64,000 nt of DNA from Phycisphaerales bacterium (GTDB taxonomy: Bacteria > Planctomycetota > Phycisphaerae > Phycisphaerales > UBA1924): NCBI GenBank assembly GCA_035627955.1, contig DASPKU010000019.1, positions 1 to 64,000 on the forward strand, read 5' to 3'. Position numbers and translations under genes: made by a program. Below are positions 1 to 4,963 of this stretch, piece by piece (position 1 is the first letter of the stretch; each line of letters begins with the position of its first letter). Under the pieces are notes generated by a model. The model searched no databases and was not told the origin of the DNA. It saw only the letters and a program-made list of their open reading frames with translations.

Positions 1-849
1 CATGGAGTCCTTCACCCACGCGAGGGTCTGCCGCCAGACCTTGAGCTCTTCGAGCACGCTGGCGAACACGGCGAACTGCGGCCCCGCAGGCGCGGCCACG
101 TACCAGACCGCCCCGGGTCGGGAGTTTGCCGCCGCAAGGCCAAGCGCGGGCCGTAGGAGCCCCTGTAGGCCCTCTACGCCGTCGTTGGCGATCTCCAGCG
201 CCTGCTCAGTCTTGCCGACATAGGAGACGCCGTAGGGCGGGTCGGTGAGGATGAGATCGGCGCGGGAGCCGGCGAGCACGCGGGCAACGTCGGCCTCCTT
301 CGTGCTGTCGCCGCAGAGAAGGCGGTGCTCGCCCAAGACCCAGAGGTCGCCGGGCTTTGAGATCGCGGTGGTGGGGGGCTCGGGGACCTCGTCCTCCTGC
401 ACCTCCGTGGGCCGTAGCTCCTCGATGAGGTCGTCGAGCTCGGCCTGGTTGAAGCCGGTCACCTCCAGCATCTCCAAGGGCAGAGACTCCAGCAGGCGCG
501 TCAGCGTCTCGTCGTCCCATTCAGCCAGCTCGCTGGTGCGGTTGTCGGAGATCGCAAAAGCGGTCGCCTCCACCTCGCTCTCGTCCACGACCACGCAGGC
601 CAGGTGGGACCAGCCGAGCTGCTTCGCGGCCAGGAGTCGGCCGTTGCCGGCGCGGACCACCATGCCCTGGCGCTGCACGACGATGGGGAACCGCTGGCCG
701 AAGCGCTTGAGAGACCCCGCGATCGCGGCGAGGTTGCGCTCGTTGTGCTTGCGGGCGTTGGAGGGGTCGAGGGTGAGCTCGGTAAGAGGTACAGCGAGGT
801 GCCTCAACGGCTCGGCGATGTACGTGAGGTGTGCGCGTGCGTCCTGCAC
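1..849 (-). CDS. ParB-like / DPPY-type DNA methyltransferase (3' end cut off by the window)
   Basis: The gene runs leftward off the window edge, leaving about 283 visible residues. An N-terminal ParB/sulfiredoxin-like part carries LDPSNARKHNERNLAAI (about residue 24) and VVRAGNGRLLAAKQLGW. It is followed by PGDLWVLGEHRLLCGDST (about residue 170) and DPPYGVSYVG (about residue 203), the catalytic motif of amino-methyltransferases that make N6-methyladenine or N4-methylcytosine. This ParB-plus-methylase architecture is common in phages and integrated elements, where it modifies DNA without a cognate nuclease. The start is uncertain: GTG at 849 and TTG at 852 follow a GGGAG, but the frame stays open upstream to an ATG at 1080. 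I chose 849 because the recognisable family sequence begins there. It lies in the integrated element, with nuclease genes 1.6 kb to the right. The rest of the catalytic domain lies outside the window. Confidence 0.85.
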   Translation of the reverse strand, partial: MQDARAHLTYIAEPLRHLAVPLTELTLDPSNARKHNERNLAAIAGSLKRFGQRFPIVVQRQGMVVRAGNGRLLAAKQLGWSHLACVVVDESEVEATAFAISDNRTSELAEWDDETLTRLLESLPLEMLEVTGFNQAELDDLIEELRPTEVQEDEVPEPPTTAISKPGDLWVLGEHRLLCGDSTKEADVARVLAGSRADLILTDPPYGVSYVGKTEQALEIANDGVEGLQGLLRPALGLAAANSRPGAVWYVAAPAGPQFAVFASVLEELKVWRQTLAWVKDSM

Positions 850-1262
850 CAATGTTGAGCTCCCATTGCTCCTCCAGATGTGTTTTACGCGCACTCGGCG
901 CTGCCGAGCAAGACCCACGTTGATCAAAGACAACTGCTTGGCGTCAAGAGGCACGACATGGCTTGTCGGGGCCCACCCCGGCAACGAAGAAAAAAACACA
1001 AATCCGAGCGTGTCCACCGAGAGTTCGCTCGGTTCTAAGTTGATCTGAGGAGTGTGGCAATGTCGCGTCTGTTCCCGCATTGACCGCACCAACCCCCGCT
1101 GGGTAGCTTCAGGTGAGAGCGCTTCTGGTCGGCTCCGCTGGAGGTAAGACCGAAAGCATTGCGCTGGGGGGCCATGCCAAGGCGGTCACAACTGGATCAT
1201 CGTCGCGGCCTGGGCCGTAGCGCTCCCGTTCACCCTGTACTACTTCTGAAAGGCGAATCCCC
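850..1262. other. 413-bp gap, no gene recognised
   Basis: This gap separates the divergently oriented methyltransferase and lipoprotein genes. The minus-strand methylase frame stays open through most of it, so part could be an N-terminal extension of that gene. A plus-strand stretch at about 1193-1249 would encode a short hydrophobic peptide ending in LPFTLYYF, but it has no start codon after its upstream stop. No RNA gene or terminator was recognised. Confidence 0.5.
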
Positions 1263-2411
1263 ATGCTCGCAAGAACCCTGATGCTCGCTGGCGCTGCAAC
1301 CCTCATTTTCGCTGGGGGCGGGTGCAGCTCCAAGTTCAAAACCGAACTCATTTCTCAGATGCCGTCGGACGTTTCCGGAGGGATCTACTACTACCTGCCA
1401 AAGACCGTGGTTCGTCTCCAAGTCGAGTACGAGTTGGCGAAGACGACCGAGTGGTTCGCGGGTAAGGACGGAAAGCCGGACAAGACAAGAGGTGAGGTCA
1501 AGACGAAGCACTCGGTCGATGTGAAGAGCGTGGCTGCCACCCCGATCTTGGTCCCTGACACCGCATACTTGTGCCGAGTGGACCTAAGCGAGCTCAACTC
1601 GGCCACGGTTGCGATCACCGACGGAATCATAAACCTCACGGACTCCGGCCTGCTCTCGTCCGTGAACGTTCCGTTCGCAGACAAAACCGCGGACATCGCA
1701 GTGTCGGTCGTGAAGACCGGGATCAGTATCGCGGCGGCAGTGACCGTCCTGGACGTAGATCCGGAGCCGAAGGTCTCCGAGCGGGAGGTGGTCCGCACCC
1801 AGATTGCTACCGTGGTGCTTACGGAGTCGAACTTCAGAGAGGGCGTGTACAGCGACCTCGAGCGCGCCAAGTCGCTGTTCTCTGGGATCACGAACGAGAT
1901 CAAAGAGGTGAAGGTGGTTCTCAGAGAGGTGTCCAGTCGGCCGCCGGCAAATGCTGGCGCGCTGCAACCCAGCGATCAGACGCCAATCCTTGAGCCCACC
2001 AACGCGGAGGAGTTGACGAGTTTCGATGGTGCTGTGGTGCGCATCCCGAAGCCATACATCATGGAGACCTCCATAGGCGGTGCGTTGGTGGACTCGCAGG
2101 TGGTGAGTTTGCCCCAACACGGGCCGATCGCTTACGTCCCCATCTCGTCGAAACGATTCACCAACAACTCTGTAATGGTGAAGCTGTCAGCAACGAGCGG
2201 TGCAGTCACTGAGGTGAAGCTGACGACCGGAAGTTCTGGGCAAGGTGCCGCGAAGGCCGCCGAAGATGTTGCAGCGCAACTCGCAGGTGCGAAGAACGCT
2301 CTTCTCGACGCACAAAAGACGGCGGCAGAGAAGGAGGCCGAGCTGCTCAAGAAAGAGAAGGAGCTGGAGGAAGCGAAGCGCGCGCTTGAGGAAGCGAGGA
2401 AGAAGCCCTGA
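1263..2411 (+). CDS. Predicted lipoprotein with C-terminal coiled coil
   Basis: This 382-aa protein starts with a signal peptide ending in a lipobox-like IFAGGGCSS (about residues 15-23), so it should be lipidated on Cys21 and held at a membrane facing away from the cytoplasm. Next comes YYYLPKTVVRLQVEYEL, which resembles the start of DUF4831-type proteins, though I could not confirm this. The middle is Ser/Thr/Val-rich and beta-like. The last 60 residues, rich in Lys, Glu and Ala (EKEAELLKKEKELEEAKRA), should form a coiled coil. GAAAGGCG upstream of the ATG is a fair ribosome site. The gene stands alone between the methyltransferase and the nuclease operon. Its role is unknown: a surface or exclusion function would suit an integrated element, but nothing in the sequence shows it. 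Confidence 0.75.
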   Translation: MLARTLMLAGAATLIFAGGGCSSKFKTELISQMPSDVSGGIYYYLPKTVVRLQVEYELAKTTEWFAGKDGKPDKTRGEVKTKHSVDVKSVAATPILVPDTAYLCRVDLSELNSATVAITDGIINLTDSGLLSSVNVPFADKTADIAVSVVKTGISIAAAVTVLDVDPEPKVSEREVVRTQIATVVLTESNFREGVYSDLERAKSLFSGITNEIKEVKVVLREVSSRPPANAGALQPSDQTPILEPTNAEELTSFDGAVVRIPKPYIMETSIGGALVDSQVVSLPQHGPIAYVPISSKRFTNNSVMVKLSATSGAVTEVKLTTGSSGQGAAKAAEDVAAQLAGAKNALLDAQKTAAEKEAELLKKEKELEEAKRALEEARKKP

Positions 2412-2427: not shown

Positions 2428-3789
2428 TCATTGCCGCCCGGAAAGCAGATCCCGTAGTTCGTCCACCTTCATTGCGGGCGTCTTCAGGTGAATGATCGCG
2501 TGGCAGTTCGGGCACACGGGGCGTAGGTCCTTCACCGGATCCAGTGTGTACTCCCTCCCGATCGACGCCACCGGGTTGAGATGGTGGGCATGGATGAAGC
2601 CCTCCGCGATCTCGCCGTACCGGTCCTCCATTTTCAACCCGCAGCAGTAGCAGCCCGTGCCCCAGTGCTTTACGCATGCCGCCTTCGCTTTGCGGCTGCG
2701 CTCATAGGCGTTGACGGTTATCTGCCTCACCGCGCCCTCTCTAACGAGGGTTGCAGGGACTTCGTCGGGGCTCGTTAGGTCGTCTGTCACGGCCTGCACT
2801 CCCCAGTGCACCTTTACCGGCGTTTCGTCAAACGTCTGAGTTGCCCGCGCGAGCCCGTGATAGGTGAACATGGCCCTGTCGTGCTCGCGGGTGAACAGGT
2901 GGACAGGCGTGCGGCCGCTCACCATTGCCTGAATGCGCGGTTGCCACACCGTCGTGCCGTTCTTCCCATACCACGCGAACTCGCTGTCGCTGAGCCAGCG
3001 ATTCCCGTAGTTGTGACCAGTCCTGGCCTCACCCAGCGTTGAGAAGATGATGAACTCCCCCCCGAGCTCTGTGTAGCCCGTGTCGAAGTCGCCGCCCTTC
3101 CCGGGAAGCCCTGCTAGTTCCCGCAACATGGCACGGGAGTACTGCTGACCAACTGCGAGTCGGTTCCCAGGAAGCTTCGGTGCGCGAGGGACGAGGAGCG
3201 AACGGACCAGCGCGGCTTCGTCGGGGTGGTCCTCCAAACGTTGCTTCAGGATCTCACGAAGGTGCTTCTGGCCGGGTCGATCTTTCGGATCGGCCGCGAT
3301 GAGGAAGGGGAAACCCAGATCCCGCAAGGCTGCGCTGACGTTTCGGATCGCGAATGTGCTGGAATTGGTGCGGCCAAGCTCCCGGTCTAGCGCCTCGGCT
3401 TCGCTCGAGACTGACGGAGCCTTGCCTGCGATGTGCGCACGCACCATGCCCATGTACACAGTGATCACACGTTGGATCTCATCATCGCTCCATCTCTCCC
3501 CCGCTGGACCCAGGCGCTCGATCCGAAAACCGAGGTTTCGGAGATAATGGTTCGCTTGCCCCGGCGCTTCGCCGCCGCTGAAATCAGCGGGCCCGAGTGG
3601 CTGTCCAAAGGCGTGCCCGGCAGCAACCCCCACGAGGGCCTTGGGCGCGTACGCCTTGTTGTTCACGATGGCTTCGTATCCGGTATGTGGCCCGAACTCT
3701 CGTCCCAAGCCCGCGTCGATGTCCGAAGCGGCGAGCAGGACGTGGTCGCGAGTGATACCTGGCGGGATGGATTTGGGCATACGGGTCAC
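2428..3789 (-). CDS. HNH endonuclease, McrA-like type IV restriction enzyme (probable)
   Basis: This 453-aa protein ends in a clear zinc-bound HNH nuclease domain: CYCCGLKMEDRYG, then FIHAHHLNPV, then LRPVCPNCHAIIH (residues about 385-440). The N-terminal 90 residues (KAYAPKALVGVAAGHAFG ... ADFSGGE ... YLRNLGFRI) resemble the head domain of the Streptomyces McrA-type enzyme (ScoMcrA). The middle (NRWLSDSEFAWYGKNGTTVW ... PVHLFTRE) resembles DUF3427-type modules. Together these suggest a modification-dependent nuclease that reads altered DNA bases and cuts, although I see no proven SRA domain. Translation starts at GTG 3789, or at ATG 3780 three codons on. It is the downstream gene of a two-gene operon, 28 bp after the NucS-like nuclease gene. 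Product class is certain; specificity is inferred. Confidence 0.85.
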   Translation of the reverse strand: MTRMPKSIPPGITRDHVLLAASDIDAGLGREFGPHTGYEAIVNNKAYAPKALVGVAAGHAFGQPLGPADFSGGEAPGQANHYLRNLGFRIERLGPAGERWSDDEIQRVITVYMGMVRAHIAGKAPSVSSEAEALDRELGRTNSSTFAIRNVSAALRDLGFPFLIAADPKDRPGQKHLREILKQRLEDHPDEAALVRSLLVPRAPKLPGNRLAVGQQYSRAMLRELAGLPGKGGDFDTGYTELGGEFIIFSTLGEARTGHNYGNRWLSDSEFAWYGKNGTTVWQPRIQAMVSGRTPVHLFTREHDRAMFTYHGLARATQTFDETPVKVHWGVQAVTDDLTSPDEVPATLVREGAVRQITVNAYERSRKAKAACVKHWGTGCYCCGLKMEDRYGEIAEGFIHAHHLNPVASIGREYTLDPVKDLRPVCPNCHAIIHLKTPAMKVDELRDLLSGRQ

Positions 3790-3817
3790 TACCTGCTCGG
3801 GTCAGGAGTCGTGGGTG

Positions 3818-4753
3818 TTATGCTTTCTGGAGCCTAAAGCTGACCTGGTACTTGTAGAACTCGATGGCCGGCGTGACTGAGAGCGCTCGCCGCAGCTTGG
3901 GGTCTTCCTCCGATGCGATGATCACGCCTCGCACGTCCTGGCCTTCCTCGGCAAGCTCGTCCTGGACGAAGCCCATGTACCGGAGGATCTGCCCTACGGC
4001 CACGTCGCTCGCGCGCCCCCTTTTGAGCTCGACCACCAGGAGCCTCTTCTTGCTCTTGCTGATGGCCAGAATGTCGATCGGGCCGGTGTCGGTGGGGTAC
4101 TGCTTGCCCACCCGTTCTCCGTCCTCGGAATAGACCTCGTACTCGCGGCCGAGCTCCGTCTGAGCCCAGTTCTCGACGAGGAAGTCCTCTAGGTGCTTCT
4201 CCATCACGAACTCGGCTGTGTCCTCTATGCCGGCTTCGCCTGCGCCAGGGATAGGAGGCTGCACCGGCCCCGCGCCCCCTAAGAGGAGTTCGATCTCCGC
4301 ACGGTGCTTGTTCAGATCGACCACGGTCCCCTGCGTGAAGGTGGAAGCCCGCAGCTCGGCCGACATTTCCGACTTCTGGATGGTGCGGTCCAACCAGCGC
4401 ACTGGCCGGCGGTGCTGGAGAATCGCACCCCCCCGGTAGAAGTAGTCGCCGGTTACTTCGCACACTCGGCAAGAGCCGCGTCCGTCCGGACAAAGCACGA
4501 TGTCGCCAACCAGAATCCCCCGCGACACGGTCCACAGCGCTGCCATGGCGAGCCCCGCACCGATCTTGGTCTTCTGCGGGTGGACCTTCTGGAATTTTGG
4601 GATGAACTCCCGGTTGAAGTCCTGCCAGCGGTCGTGGAACTGGCCGCTCAGGTCCTCATCGATCTCGTAGTCGGTTCCGATGAAACCCTCACCGAAGCAC
4701 GCTTCGGCGTGGGCGCTTCCCTTTCCCAACATCACCCGGTAGTAGTTCCTCAT
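3818..4753 (-). CDS. NucS-like (DUF91) PD-(D/E)XK endonuclease with N-terminal reader-like domain
   Basis: This 311-aa protein has two parts. Residues 1-155 (MRNYYRVMLGKGSAHAEACF, GFIGTDYEI, GDIVLCPDGRGSCRV, RRPVRWLDRT) form a domain seen at the N-terminus of Mrr-type restriction proteins, possibly PUA-like. Residues about 190-311 carry a PD-(D/E)XK nuclease of the NucS/DUF91 kind: FLVENW, GPIDILA, LLVVELKRG and GQILRYMGFV supply the usual E, D, ExK and Q. The start is ATG 4753, preceded by GGAGG. An upstream ATG at 4879 would add 42 residues unlike the family and would run into the TGGCAC sites. It heads an operon with the HNH gene. The likely role is DNA cleavage in defence against phages or plasmids, inferred from the fold and the neighbours. 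Confidence 0.85.
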   Translation of the reverse strand: MRNYYRVMLGKGSAHAEACFGEGFIGTDYEIDEDLSGQFHDRWQDFNREFIPKFQKVHPQKTKIGAGLAMAALWTVSRGILVGDIVLCPDGRGSCRVCEVTGDYFYRGGAILQHRRPVRWLDRTIQKSEMSAELRASTFTQGTVVDLNKHRAEIELLLGGAGPVQPPIPGAGEAGIEDTAEFVMEKHLEDFLVENWAQTELGREYEVYSEDGERVGKQYPTDTGPIDILAISKSKKRLLVVELKRGRASDVAVGQILRYMGFVQDELAEEGQDVRGVIIASEEDPKLRRALSVTPAIEFYKYQVSFRLQKA

Positions 4754-4906: not shown

Positions 4907-4963
4907 CTGTAAAACAAGGGGTTCCGGATAGGTGCCCCGGTAGGTTCAAATCCTAGTACCCCA
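4907..4963 (+). pseudogene. Displaced 3' half of tRNA-Tyr(GTA), probable element attachment site
   Basis: CTGTAAA (4907-4913) matches the tRNA-Tyr anticodon loop with anticodon GTA. It is followed by a 3' anticodon strand, a long class II variable arm (GGGG...CCCC), a T arm with loop TTCAAAT (4945-4951) and an acceptor strand TACCCCA. No D arm or 5' acceptor strand precedes it, so this is not a working tRNA. The outermost T-stem pair is G-G, as expected for a copy no longer under selection. Elements that integrate into the 3' half of a tRNA leave this kind of fragment at their far end. The intact tRNA-Tyr should lie left of the window. Confidence 0.7.

What the first reader, a model, noticed from the sequence alone, without database searches (positions are those of the whole stretch)
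2428..4753. Two-nuclease operon: NucS-like PD-(D/E)XK protein plus McrA-like HNH protein
Both proteins pair a nuclease (ExK core; HNH with zinc cysteines) with an N-terminal domain of the kind that reads modified bases (Mrr/PUA-like; ScoMcrA head-like). They are 28 bp apart in one operon at the end of an integrated element. One modification-dependent nuclease alone is ordinary; two different folds in one operon suggest a cooperating defence system, perhaps each cutting one strand or recognising different marks.
Basis: partly seen in the sequence, partly recalled or inferred. Interest (0 to 1): 0.65.

Follow-up and report, generated by a model that had tools for sequence, protein, structure and literature searches.

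The report
Two modified-DNA-cutting enzymes, side by side
Two neighbouring bacterial genes each join a predicted modified-base reader to a DNA-cutting domain, but relatives elsewhere show that they normally live apart, so this is most likely two known kinds of anti-phage enzyme packed together rather than one new joint machine.

Summary
Both genes are real and lie where stated. P2 (3818-4753, minus) has an EVE/YTH-type N-domain, by predicted fold, plus a NucS/EndoMS nuclease. P1 (2428-3780, minus) is ScoMcrA head + uncharacterised helical module + SRA domain (DUF3427, as in SauUSI) + HNH. The 'one cooperating system' idea is not supported. Of 54 well-flanked P2 loci, 39 lie by type I restriction genes, 33 with hsdM upstream and hsdR downstream. 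P2's nearest relatives sit in an intact and a decayed hsd operon. A P1-type HNH gene follows P2 in 1 of 80 loci, and lacks P1's other domains. A NucS-type neighbour was seen at 3 of 112 HNH loci: one reached through P2, one judged a different nuclease, and one, in another planctomycete, an independent EVE-PD-(D/E)XK plus HNH pair. So a loose pairing is not excluded. Best reading: two type IV (modification-dependent) enzymes, probably reading different marks, bundled as defence cargo beside a tRNA-like remnant. Everything biochemical is inferred.

The parts
3818..4753 (-). P2: EVE/YTH-like domain (residues ~1-160) + NucS/EndoMS-type PD-(D/E)XK nuclease (~176-306); 311 aa; PADLOC candidate family PDC-S02
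2428..3780 (-). P1: ScoMcrA-type head (1-92) + helical module (93-200) + SRA/DUF3427 (about 200-336) + HNH (about 360-448); 450 aa
2773..3183 (-). SRA-fold domain of P1 (residues 200-336), the likely modified-cytosine reader; Y236, F246, W270 align with SauUSI pocket residues Y831, F841, W868
4274..4753 (-). EVE/YTH-like domain of P2 (residues 1-160)
   Evidence: 2p5d Z 10.2 (2.6 A, 112 residues), 1wmm Z 10.2 (2.8 A, 113), VcaM4I 6yex Z 10.1 (2.9 A, 120), YTHDC2 9szp Z 9.8 (3.0 A, 118)
4920..4963 (+). tRNA 3'-end-like stretch upstream of P2, possible attachment-site remnant
   Evidence: sequence read by eye; not called as a tRNA; core found once in the assembly

Best explanation
The pair is two separate modification-dependent (type IV-like) restriction nucleases carried as defence cargo near a tRNA-like site. 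Proposed mechanism: P2, as a dimer, uses its EVE/YTH-like pocket to catch a modified base, and its NucS-type PD-(D/E)XK domain cuts both strands nearby. P1, as a dimer, flips a modified cytosine (5mC or 5hmC) into its SRA pocket, and its HNH domain cuts. Transcribed together they cover different marks, layered rather than interdependent. P2 probably came from the accessory slot between hsdS and hsdR of a type I restriction operon and here stands without it. Shown: predicted folds, conserved catalytic residues, genomic contexts. Inferred: which base each reads, dimers, cleavage, independence, co-transcription.
For: P2: EndoMS/NucS Z 14.5 (3.0 A, 115 residues) and EVE/YTH Z about 10 over residues 1-160; invariant D/ExK/QxxRY; PDC-S02 8e-139. 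P1: SauUSI SRA Z 11.7 (3.9 A, 117 residues), SUVH5 and SUVH6 SRA Z 10.2 (3.1 and 3.0 A), ScoMcrA SRA Z 9.5 (3.6 A, 119), TagI spanning 199-450 (Z 9.0); profile hits to McrA HNH (8.5e-5) and SauUSI SRA (0.0033); three pocket aromatics kept; PADLOC type IV model weak hit 0.0042. Separate lives: P2 beside hsd genes in 39 of 54 well-flanked loci; SRA-HNH proteins without a NucS-type neighbour in viral contigs and, on a Priestia plasmid, two genes away from a cytosine methyltransferase. Nearest P2 relatives L074 and L091 lie in a decayed and an intact hsd operon. No hsd-type gene in the 64 kb window by the same profiles. No C5-methyltransferase match in the host genome (95.67% complete; control 10 of 14), so a 5mC reader would spare it.
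Against: No sequence-level EVE match for P2 (Pfam at E<=1 lists none), and Foldseek's own list has no EVE or YTH chain at E<=0.001 (first YTH 0.0092); EVE/YTH rests on the predicted fold and the second-look aligner. Modification dependence is untested. SauUSI's base-contacting D858 is N260 in P1 and I842 is S247. The tree grouping of P2 with L074/L091 has support 90/93, short of the 95/80 star. G292 has an independent EVE-PD-(D/E)XK + HNH pair in the same order, and L091 has P2 followed by an HNH gene, which fits some functional pairing. The SRA-HNH relative near a C5-methyltransferase in Priestia could have a conventional, not modification-dependent, role. The host does have one N6_Mtase match that passes Pfam's cut-off (E 9.7e-4, 21.7 vs 20.4 bits, in a 1100-aa frame about 362 kb away); whether it belongs to a type I system was not followed.
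Confidence: 0.68

Rival explanations
1. P2 and P1 form one cooperating two-nuclease system: each reads a different mark or one strand, and both are needed for restriction.
For: Tight spacing of 28-37 bp, same strand. An independent EVE-PD-(D/E)XK gene followed, about 160 bp on, by a P1-type HNH gene in G292, same order. P2 followed about 85 bp on by an HNH gene in L091, whose P2 is in the window's sister group.
Against: P1-type HNH is the next gene in 1 of 80 P2 loci. NucS-type neighbours at 3 of 112 HNH-positive loci (113 scanned, mostly 1.5 kb flanks), of which L179 is the L091 place, reached through P2, and L188 (G560) is, by eye, a nuclease with another domain order beside an 88-aa HNH fragment. 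None in 62 viral-contig HNH loci on 45 contigs. The HNH partners in G292 and L091 show no SRA or head.
Confidence: 0.12
2. P2 is a component of a type I restriction complex (it sits between hsdS and hsdR) that widens it to modified DNA; here it is an orphan and P1 is an unrelated neighbour.
For: hsdM upstream and hsdR downstream in 33 of 54 well-flanked loci; all four of hsdM, hsdS, hsdR and a SprT-family protease in 28 of 54; hsdR within 300 bp of P2 in 37 of 80. Stand-alone EVE and PIN-GNAT-EVE proteins with type I systems are described (PMC7641849, passages).
Against: 0 of 30 HsdR relatives fetched from 349 Pseudomonadota genomes have P2 within 1.5 kb (12 are close relatives, the rest about 30-37% identical, and at least two lie too near a contig end to tell), so it is optional. 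15 of 54 P2 loci have no hsd hit nearby. P2 has its own complete nuclease.
Confidence: 0.15
3. P2 is a NucS/EndoMS-type mismatch-repair endonuclease rather than a defence nuclease.
For: C-domain matches EndoMS/NucS.
Against: N-domain matches EVE/YTH structures, and the EndoMS/NucS matches cover only 176-306; NCBIfam NucS equivalogs score 45.9 and 33.9 bits against cut-offs of 216 and 252; genomic context is mostly restriction operons.
Confidence: 0.03

Closest known systems
ScoMcrA (type IV, head-SBD-SRA-HNH)
   Same: Head domain matched by profile, SRA fold (5zmm Z 9.5), C-terminal HNH, same order head-x-SRA-HNH (architecture from PMC6224610 passages)
   Different: The second domain of P1 is a helical module shared with NOV_C-bearing proteins, and the profile did not reach the sulfur-binding domain; the SRA is closest to that of SauUSI
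SauUSI SRA domain (DUF3427)
   Same: Pfam DUF3427 3.4e-9; Z 11.7; three pocket aromatics kept
   Different: SauUSI has a PLD nuclease and an ATPase (PMC7913695 and PMC3874153 passages); P1 has HNH and no ATPase match
TagI / SRA-HNH endonucleases
   Same: SRA followed by HNH; TagI match spans P1 199-450 (Z 9.0, rmsd 14 over two domains)
   Different: P1 has an extra 200-residue head plus helical region
EVE-PD-(D/E)XK and EVE-HNH (VcaM4I) type IV enzymes
   Same: EVE-type reader fused to a nuclease, a class predicted in PMC7641849 (passages); VcaM4I EVE Z 10.1 over P2 2-160
   Different: Nuclease is NucS-like; 'NucS' and 'DUF91' do not occur in that paper's main text
PADLOC candidate PDC-S02
   Same: Full-length match 8e-139 and 9.3e-132
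   Different: A candidate family, function not given in the library; its hsdS-hsdR position is described here

Membership tests
SRA-HNH type IV restriction enzymes (TagI, ScoMcrA) for P1 | SRA-fold reader | tested here: met
SRA-HNH type IV restriction enzymes (TagI, ScoMcrA) for P1 | HNH nuclease with zinc cysteines and catalytic histidines | tested here: met
   Pfam HNH below cut-off
SRA-HNH type IV restriction enzymes (TagI, ScoMcrA) for P1 | Cleavage only of modified DNA | not testable with these tools
   needs biochemistry
ScoMcrA proper | Head domain | tested here: met
   5.7e-8
ScoMcrA proper | Sulfur-binding domain (SBD) | tested here: inconclusive
   profile hit to 5zmm covers only the head; model of 93-200 has low to middling confidence
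EVE-PD-(D/E)XK modification-dependent enzymes for P2 | EVE/YTH (PUA-like) fold | tested here: met
   Z about 10 over residues 1-160, on a predicted model; no Pfam EVE match and no EVE/YTH chain at Foldseek E<=0.001
EVE-PD-(D/E)XK modification-dependent enzymes for P2 | Intact PD-(D/E)XK nuclease | tested here: met
EVE-PD-(D/E)XK modification-dependent enzymes for P2 | Binding of a modified base | not testable with these tools
   needs binding assay
NucS/EndoMS mismatch endonuclease for P2 | NCBIfam NucS equivalog score | tested here: not met
   45.9 and 33.9 bits vs cut-offs 216 and 252
One conserved two-nuclease system (P2+P1) | Pair conserved in other genomes | tested here: not met
   one loose analogue in G292
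Type I restriction accessory gene (P2) | Lies among hsd genes | tested here: not met
   true of 39 of 54 relatives but not of the window: no HsdR, HsdS, HsdM or SprT profile hit in its 64 kb; DNA beyond the contig end is unseen

The most novel reading that the evidence does not exclude
An EVE/YTH-type PD-(D/E)XK nuclease followed by a reader-bearing or plain HNH nuclease is a recurring, loosely conserved two-gene module (window, G292, L091) in which two nucleases act together on modified DNA, partners being swapped over time.
Probability: 0.12. Interest if true: 0.6.

Novelty: new variant of a known kind. Interest (0 to 1): 0.3.

Why it matters
It places an uncharacterised defence candidate (PDC-S02) as an EVE/YTH-NucS enzyme that often occupies the slot between hsdS and hsdR of type I restriction operons in many phyla. 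That makes a simple, testable link between methylation-blocked restriction (type I) and restriction of modified DNA (type IV). It also shows a ScoMcrA-like enzyme in which the sulfur-reading part appears to be swapped for another module. Neither is a new class of system.

Tried and rejected
Rejected: P1's head as base reader (function unknown in ScoMcrA); one-strand-each cutting (no evidence, not needed); NucS mismatch repair; P2 as an obligate type I subunit. G560 looked like a further nuclease-HNH pair; on inspection by eye its nuclease domain is N-terminal in a 330-aa protein, the order is HNH first, and the HNH frame is 88 aa (no Pfam run), so it was dropped from the analogue list. G377 (contig C98) has a P1-like head and, 55 bp on, a P1-like HNH in separate frames; it may be a decayed P1 relative and was not followed further.

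Led nowhere: viral-contig scans with P1 and with the head-module protein; the head alignment was not conserved enough to scan with; P1 in phage records gives HNH only (7 records); P2 in phage records gives no match; Rfam near the pair gives chance-level hits. In plasmids P2 has 24 matching records, 7 at 80% coverage or more, and P1 has 1345 with partial matches, none at 80% (40 of the 1345 listed). Literature: searches for NucS + type I restriction + SprT, 'endonuclease NucS domain' + type I restriction and EVE domain + NucS found 0 papers in the held library; most subscription papers are not held. A looser search gave 1,371 papers, 15 listed, none opened.

Rows dropped and limits: L093 was left out of the tree because its P2 reading has a stop. 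26 of 80 P2 loci have under 4 kb of flank on a side and are outside the n = 54 counts. The hsd profiles were built from clusters of these same loci, named by one annotated plasmid; a few single hits (L069, L074, L096, L110, L126) may be remnants or other helicases. An earlier count undercounted neighbours through overlapping stop-to-stop frames and was replaced. Only 50 of the 80 P2 genomes were searched for P1 (14 of 50 have some P1-domain match). A2 holds 44 rows chosen from the P2 homologues. The HNH profile sees P1-type HNH domains, not every HNH family. The nuclease profile used was trained partly on the G292 protein, so its score there is inflated; Pfam supports it independently.

Full report
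What is there. On the minus strand P2 (3818-4753, 311 aa) is followed by P1 (2428-3780, 450 aa). The P1 start is most likely the ATG at 3780, because homologues L015 and L170 have a methionine at the same place; the gap is then 37 bp (28 bp from the GTG at 3789). The window starts at the first base of contig C19 of a 4.26 Mb, 23-contig genome, so whatever lies beyond is unseen.

P2. Above cut-off, Pfam finds only the NucS C-terminal nuclease (4.9e-9). PADLOC's candidate family PDC-S02 matches end to end (8e-139). With 44 sequences the AlphaFold model has mean pLDDT 86.6. Residues 176-306 match EndoMS/NucS (Z 14.5, 3.0 A over 115 residues; 14.2, 2.2 A over 108). Residues 1-160 match EVE proteins (2p5d Z 10.2, 2.6 A over 112; 1wmm Z 10.2, 2.8 A over 113), the EVE-HNH enzyme VcaM4I (Z 10.1, 2.9 A over 120) and YTH m6A readers (9szp, YTHDC2 with m6A DNA, Z 9.8, 3.0 A over 118). 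Foldseek's own ranking is weaker there: its matches at E<=0.001 are NucS/EndoMS, MspJI and AspBHI, and the first YTH chain has 0.0092. Nuclease residues are invariant. Pfam's EVE model does not reach E 1 on P2. So the EVE/YTH call rests on the predicted fold, and which base it reads is unknown.

P1. Four parts. Residues 4-91 of a head alignment match the ScoMcrA head (5.7e-8). Residues 94-194 match the N-part of PADLOC's PDC-S36; head plus helical module also precede a NOV_C domain in L015. Residues 206-331 are DUF3427; the C-terminal domain of SauUSI, which bears that Pfam name (PMC3874153, passages), has the SRA fold (PMC7913695, passages). The P1 model, good only in its C-terminal half (mean pLDDT 70.7), matches SauUSI's SRA (Z 11.7, 3.9 A over 117), SUVH5/6 SRA bound to methylated DNA (Z 10.2), ScoMcrA's SRA (Z 9.5), and TagI over 199-450 (Z 9.0). 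SauUSI's proposed pocket residues Y831, F841 and W868 align with Y236, F246 and W270; I842 and D858 become S247 and N260. The HNH domain matches McrA (8.5e-5 with a profile). P1 therefore looks like an SRA-HNH type IV enzyme with a ScoMcrA-type front.

Is the pair conserved? One scan of genome contigs gave 241 P2 relatives; the best 80 were kept. Neighbours were named from the RefSeq annotation of an Acinetobacter plasmid and counted with profiles built from these loci. Of 54 loci with at least 4 kb on both sides, 39 have a type I profile hit on the same strand within 6 kb; 33 have hsdM upstream and hsdR downstream; 28 have all four of hsdM, hsdS, hsdR and the SprT-family protease; 15 have no hsd hit. 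P1-type HNH signals within 6 kb: 3 of 80 (L091, L121, L138), only L091 being the next gene. Conversely, of 113 P1-type HNH loci scanned with mostly 1.5 kb flanks, 112 gave the HNH hit and 3 a NucS-type neighbour: G292, L179 (the L091 place, reached through P2) and G560, by eye a nuclease with another domain order beside an HNH fragment. In 62 viral-contig HNH loci (45 contigs) there was none. No second full-length P1 was found in searches of 61, 294, 50 and 349 genomes, partly shared and scoring only a few candidates per genome.

Results that favour a link. G292, another planctomycete, has a Pfam-recognised EVE domain fused to a YhcG/NucS-type nuclease, followed by a P1-type HNH gene in the same order. 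L091 has P2 then an HNH gene inside an hsd operon. In the P2 tree the window groups with L074 and L091 (support 90/93, not starred). L074's P2 lies between remnants of hsd genes (partly by eye), L091's in an hsd operon. This suggests that the window's P2 left such an operon; no HsdR, HsdS, HsdM or SprT profile hit is found in the 64 kb window. The HNH partners in G292 and L091 show neither SRA nor head, so they are not P1.

Is P2 part of type I systems? It is optional: 0 of 30 HsdR relatives fetched from 349 Pseudomonadota genomes (60 of which have a match) carry it within 1.5 kb; 12 of the 30 are close relatives, and at least two are too near a contig end to tell. EVE proteins alone or in PIN-GNAT-EVE fusions near type I systems, and EVE-PD-(D/E)XK type IV enzymes, are described (PMC7641849, passages). 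A NucS-type version in the hsdS-hsdR slot was not found in print in the held library.

Self-protection. The host genome (95.67% complete) has no C5-methyltransferase match. It has one N6_Mtase match, weak but over the curated cut-off (21.7 vs 20.4 bits), in a 1100-aa frame about 362 kb away, not followed up. A 5mC/5hmC reader would thus be harmless to this host as far as seen. This is consistent with, not proof of, P1 reading modified cytosine.

Verdict. Two modification-dependent nucleases of known kinds, in new domain variants, side by side. The cooperation hypothesis fails its own conservation test but is not excluded.

Noticed in passing
window 1-1092 (-): ORF cut by the contig end with a weak ParB_N match (E 6.1e-4, below cut-off) and, by eye, a DNA-methyltransferase-like DPPYG motif; a type common in phages and integrative elements (recalled).
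   Followed up: partly
window 1263-2411 (+): Gene converging on P1; weak DUF4831 match (3.8e-4, below cut-off), lipoprotein-like start and lysine/glutamate-rich tail (by eye).
   Followed up: no
window 4920-4963 (+): tRNA 3'-end-like stretch next to the pair, core single-copy in the assembly; no partner copy seen.
   Followed up: partly
L067-L145 loci (e.g. L068, L103, L116): P2 homologues often sit between hsdS and hsdR, a few bases from each, in type I operons ending with a SprT-family protease, across many phyla.
   Followed up: yes
L074 and L091: Very similar P2 proteins in a planctomycete and a verrucomicrobium (tree branches 0.05 and 0.07), one in a decayed, one in an intact hsd operon: likely recent transfer between phyla.
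   Followed up: partly
L146 8001-10137: A P2 homologue followed about 75 bp on by a second NucS_C protein (about 379 aa): tandem NucS-type nucleases.
   Followed up: no
L006 2781-6753: Priestia plasmid with a cytosine methyltransferase, a 575-aa protein without a significant Pfam match and an SRA(DUF3427)-HNH protein: possibly a restriction-modification set using an SRA-type reader.
   Followed up: no
G377:C98:22118-22730 (L171, L184): P1-like head and P1-like HNH in adjacent separate frames, perhaps a decayed P1 relative in a planctomycete that also carries a P2 homologue (L099).
   Followed up: no
G000:C19:366627-367064 (L215): The host's one N6_Mtase match, in a 1100-aa open frame, over the Pfam cut-off: a possible further restriction or BREX-like gene, not identified.
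   Followed up: no
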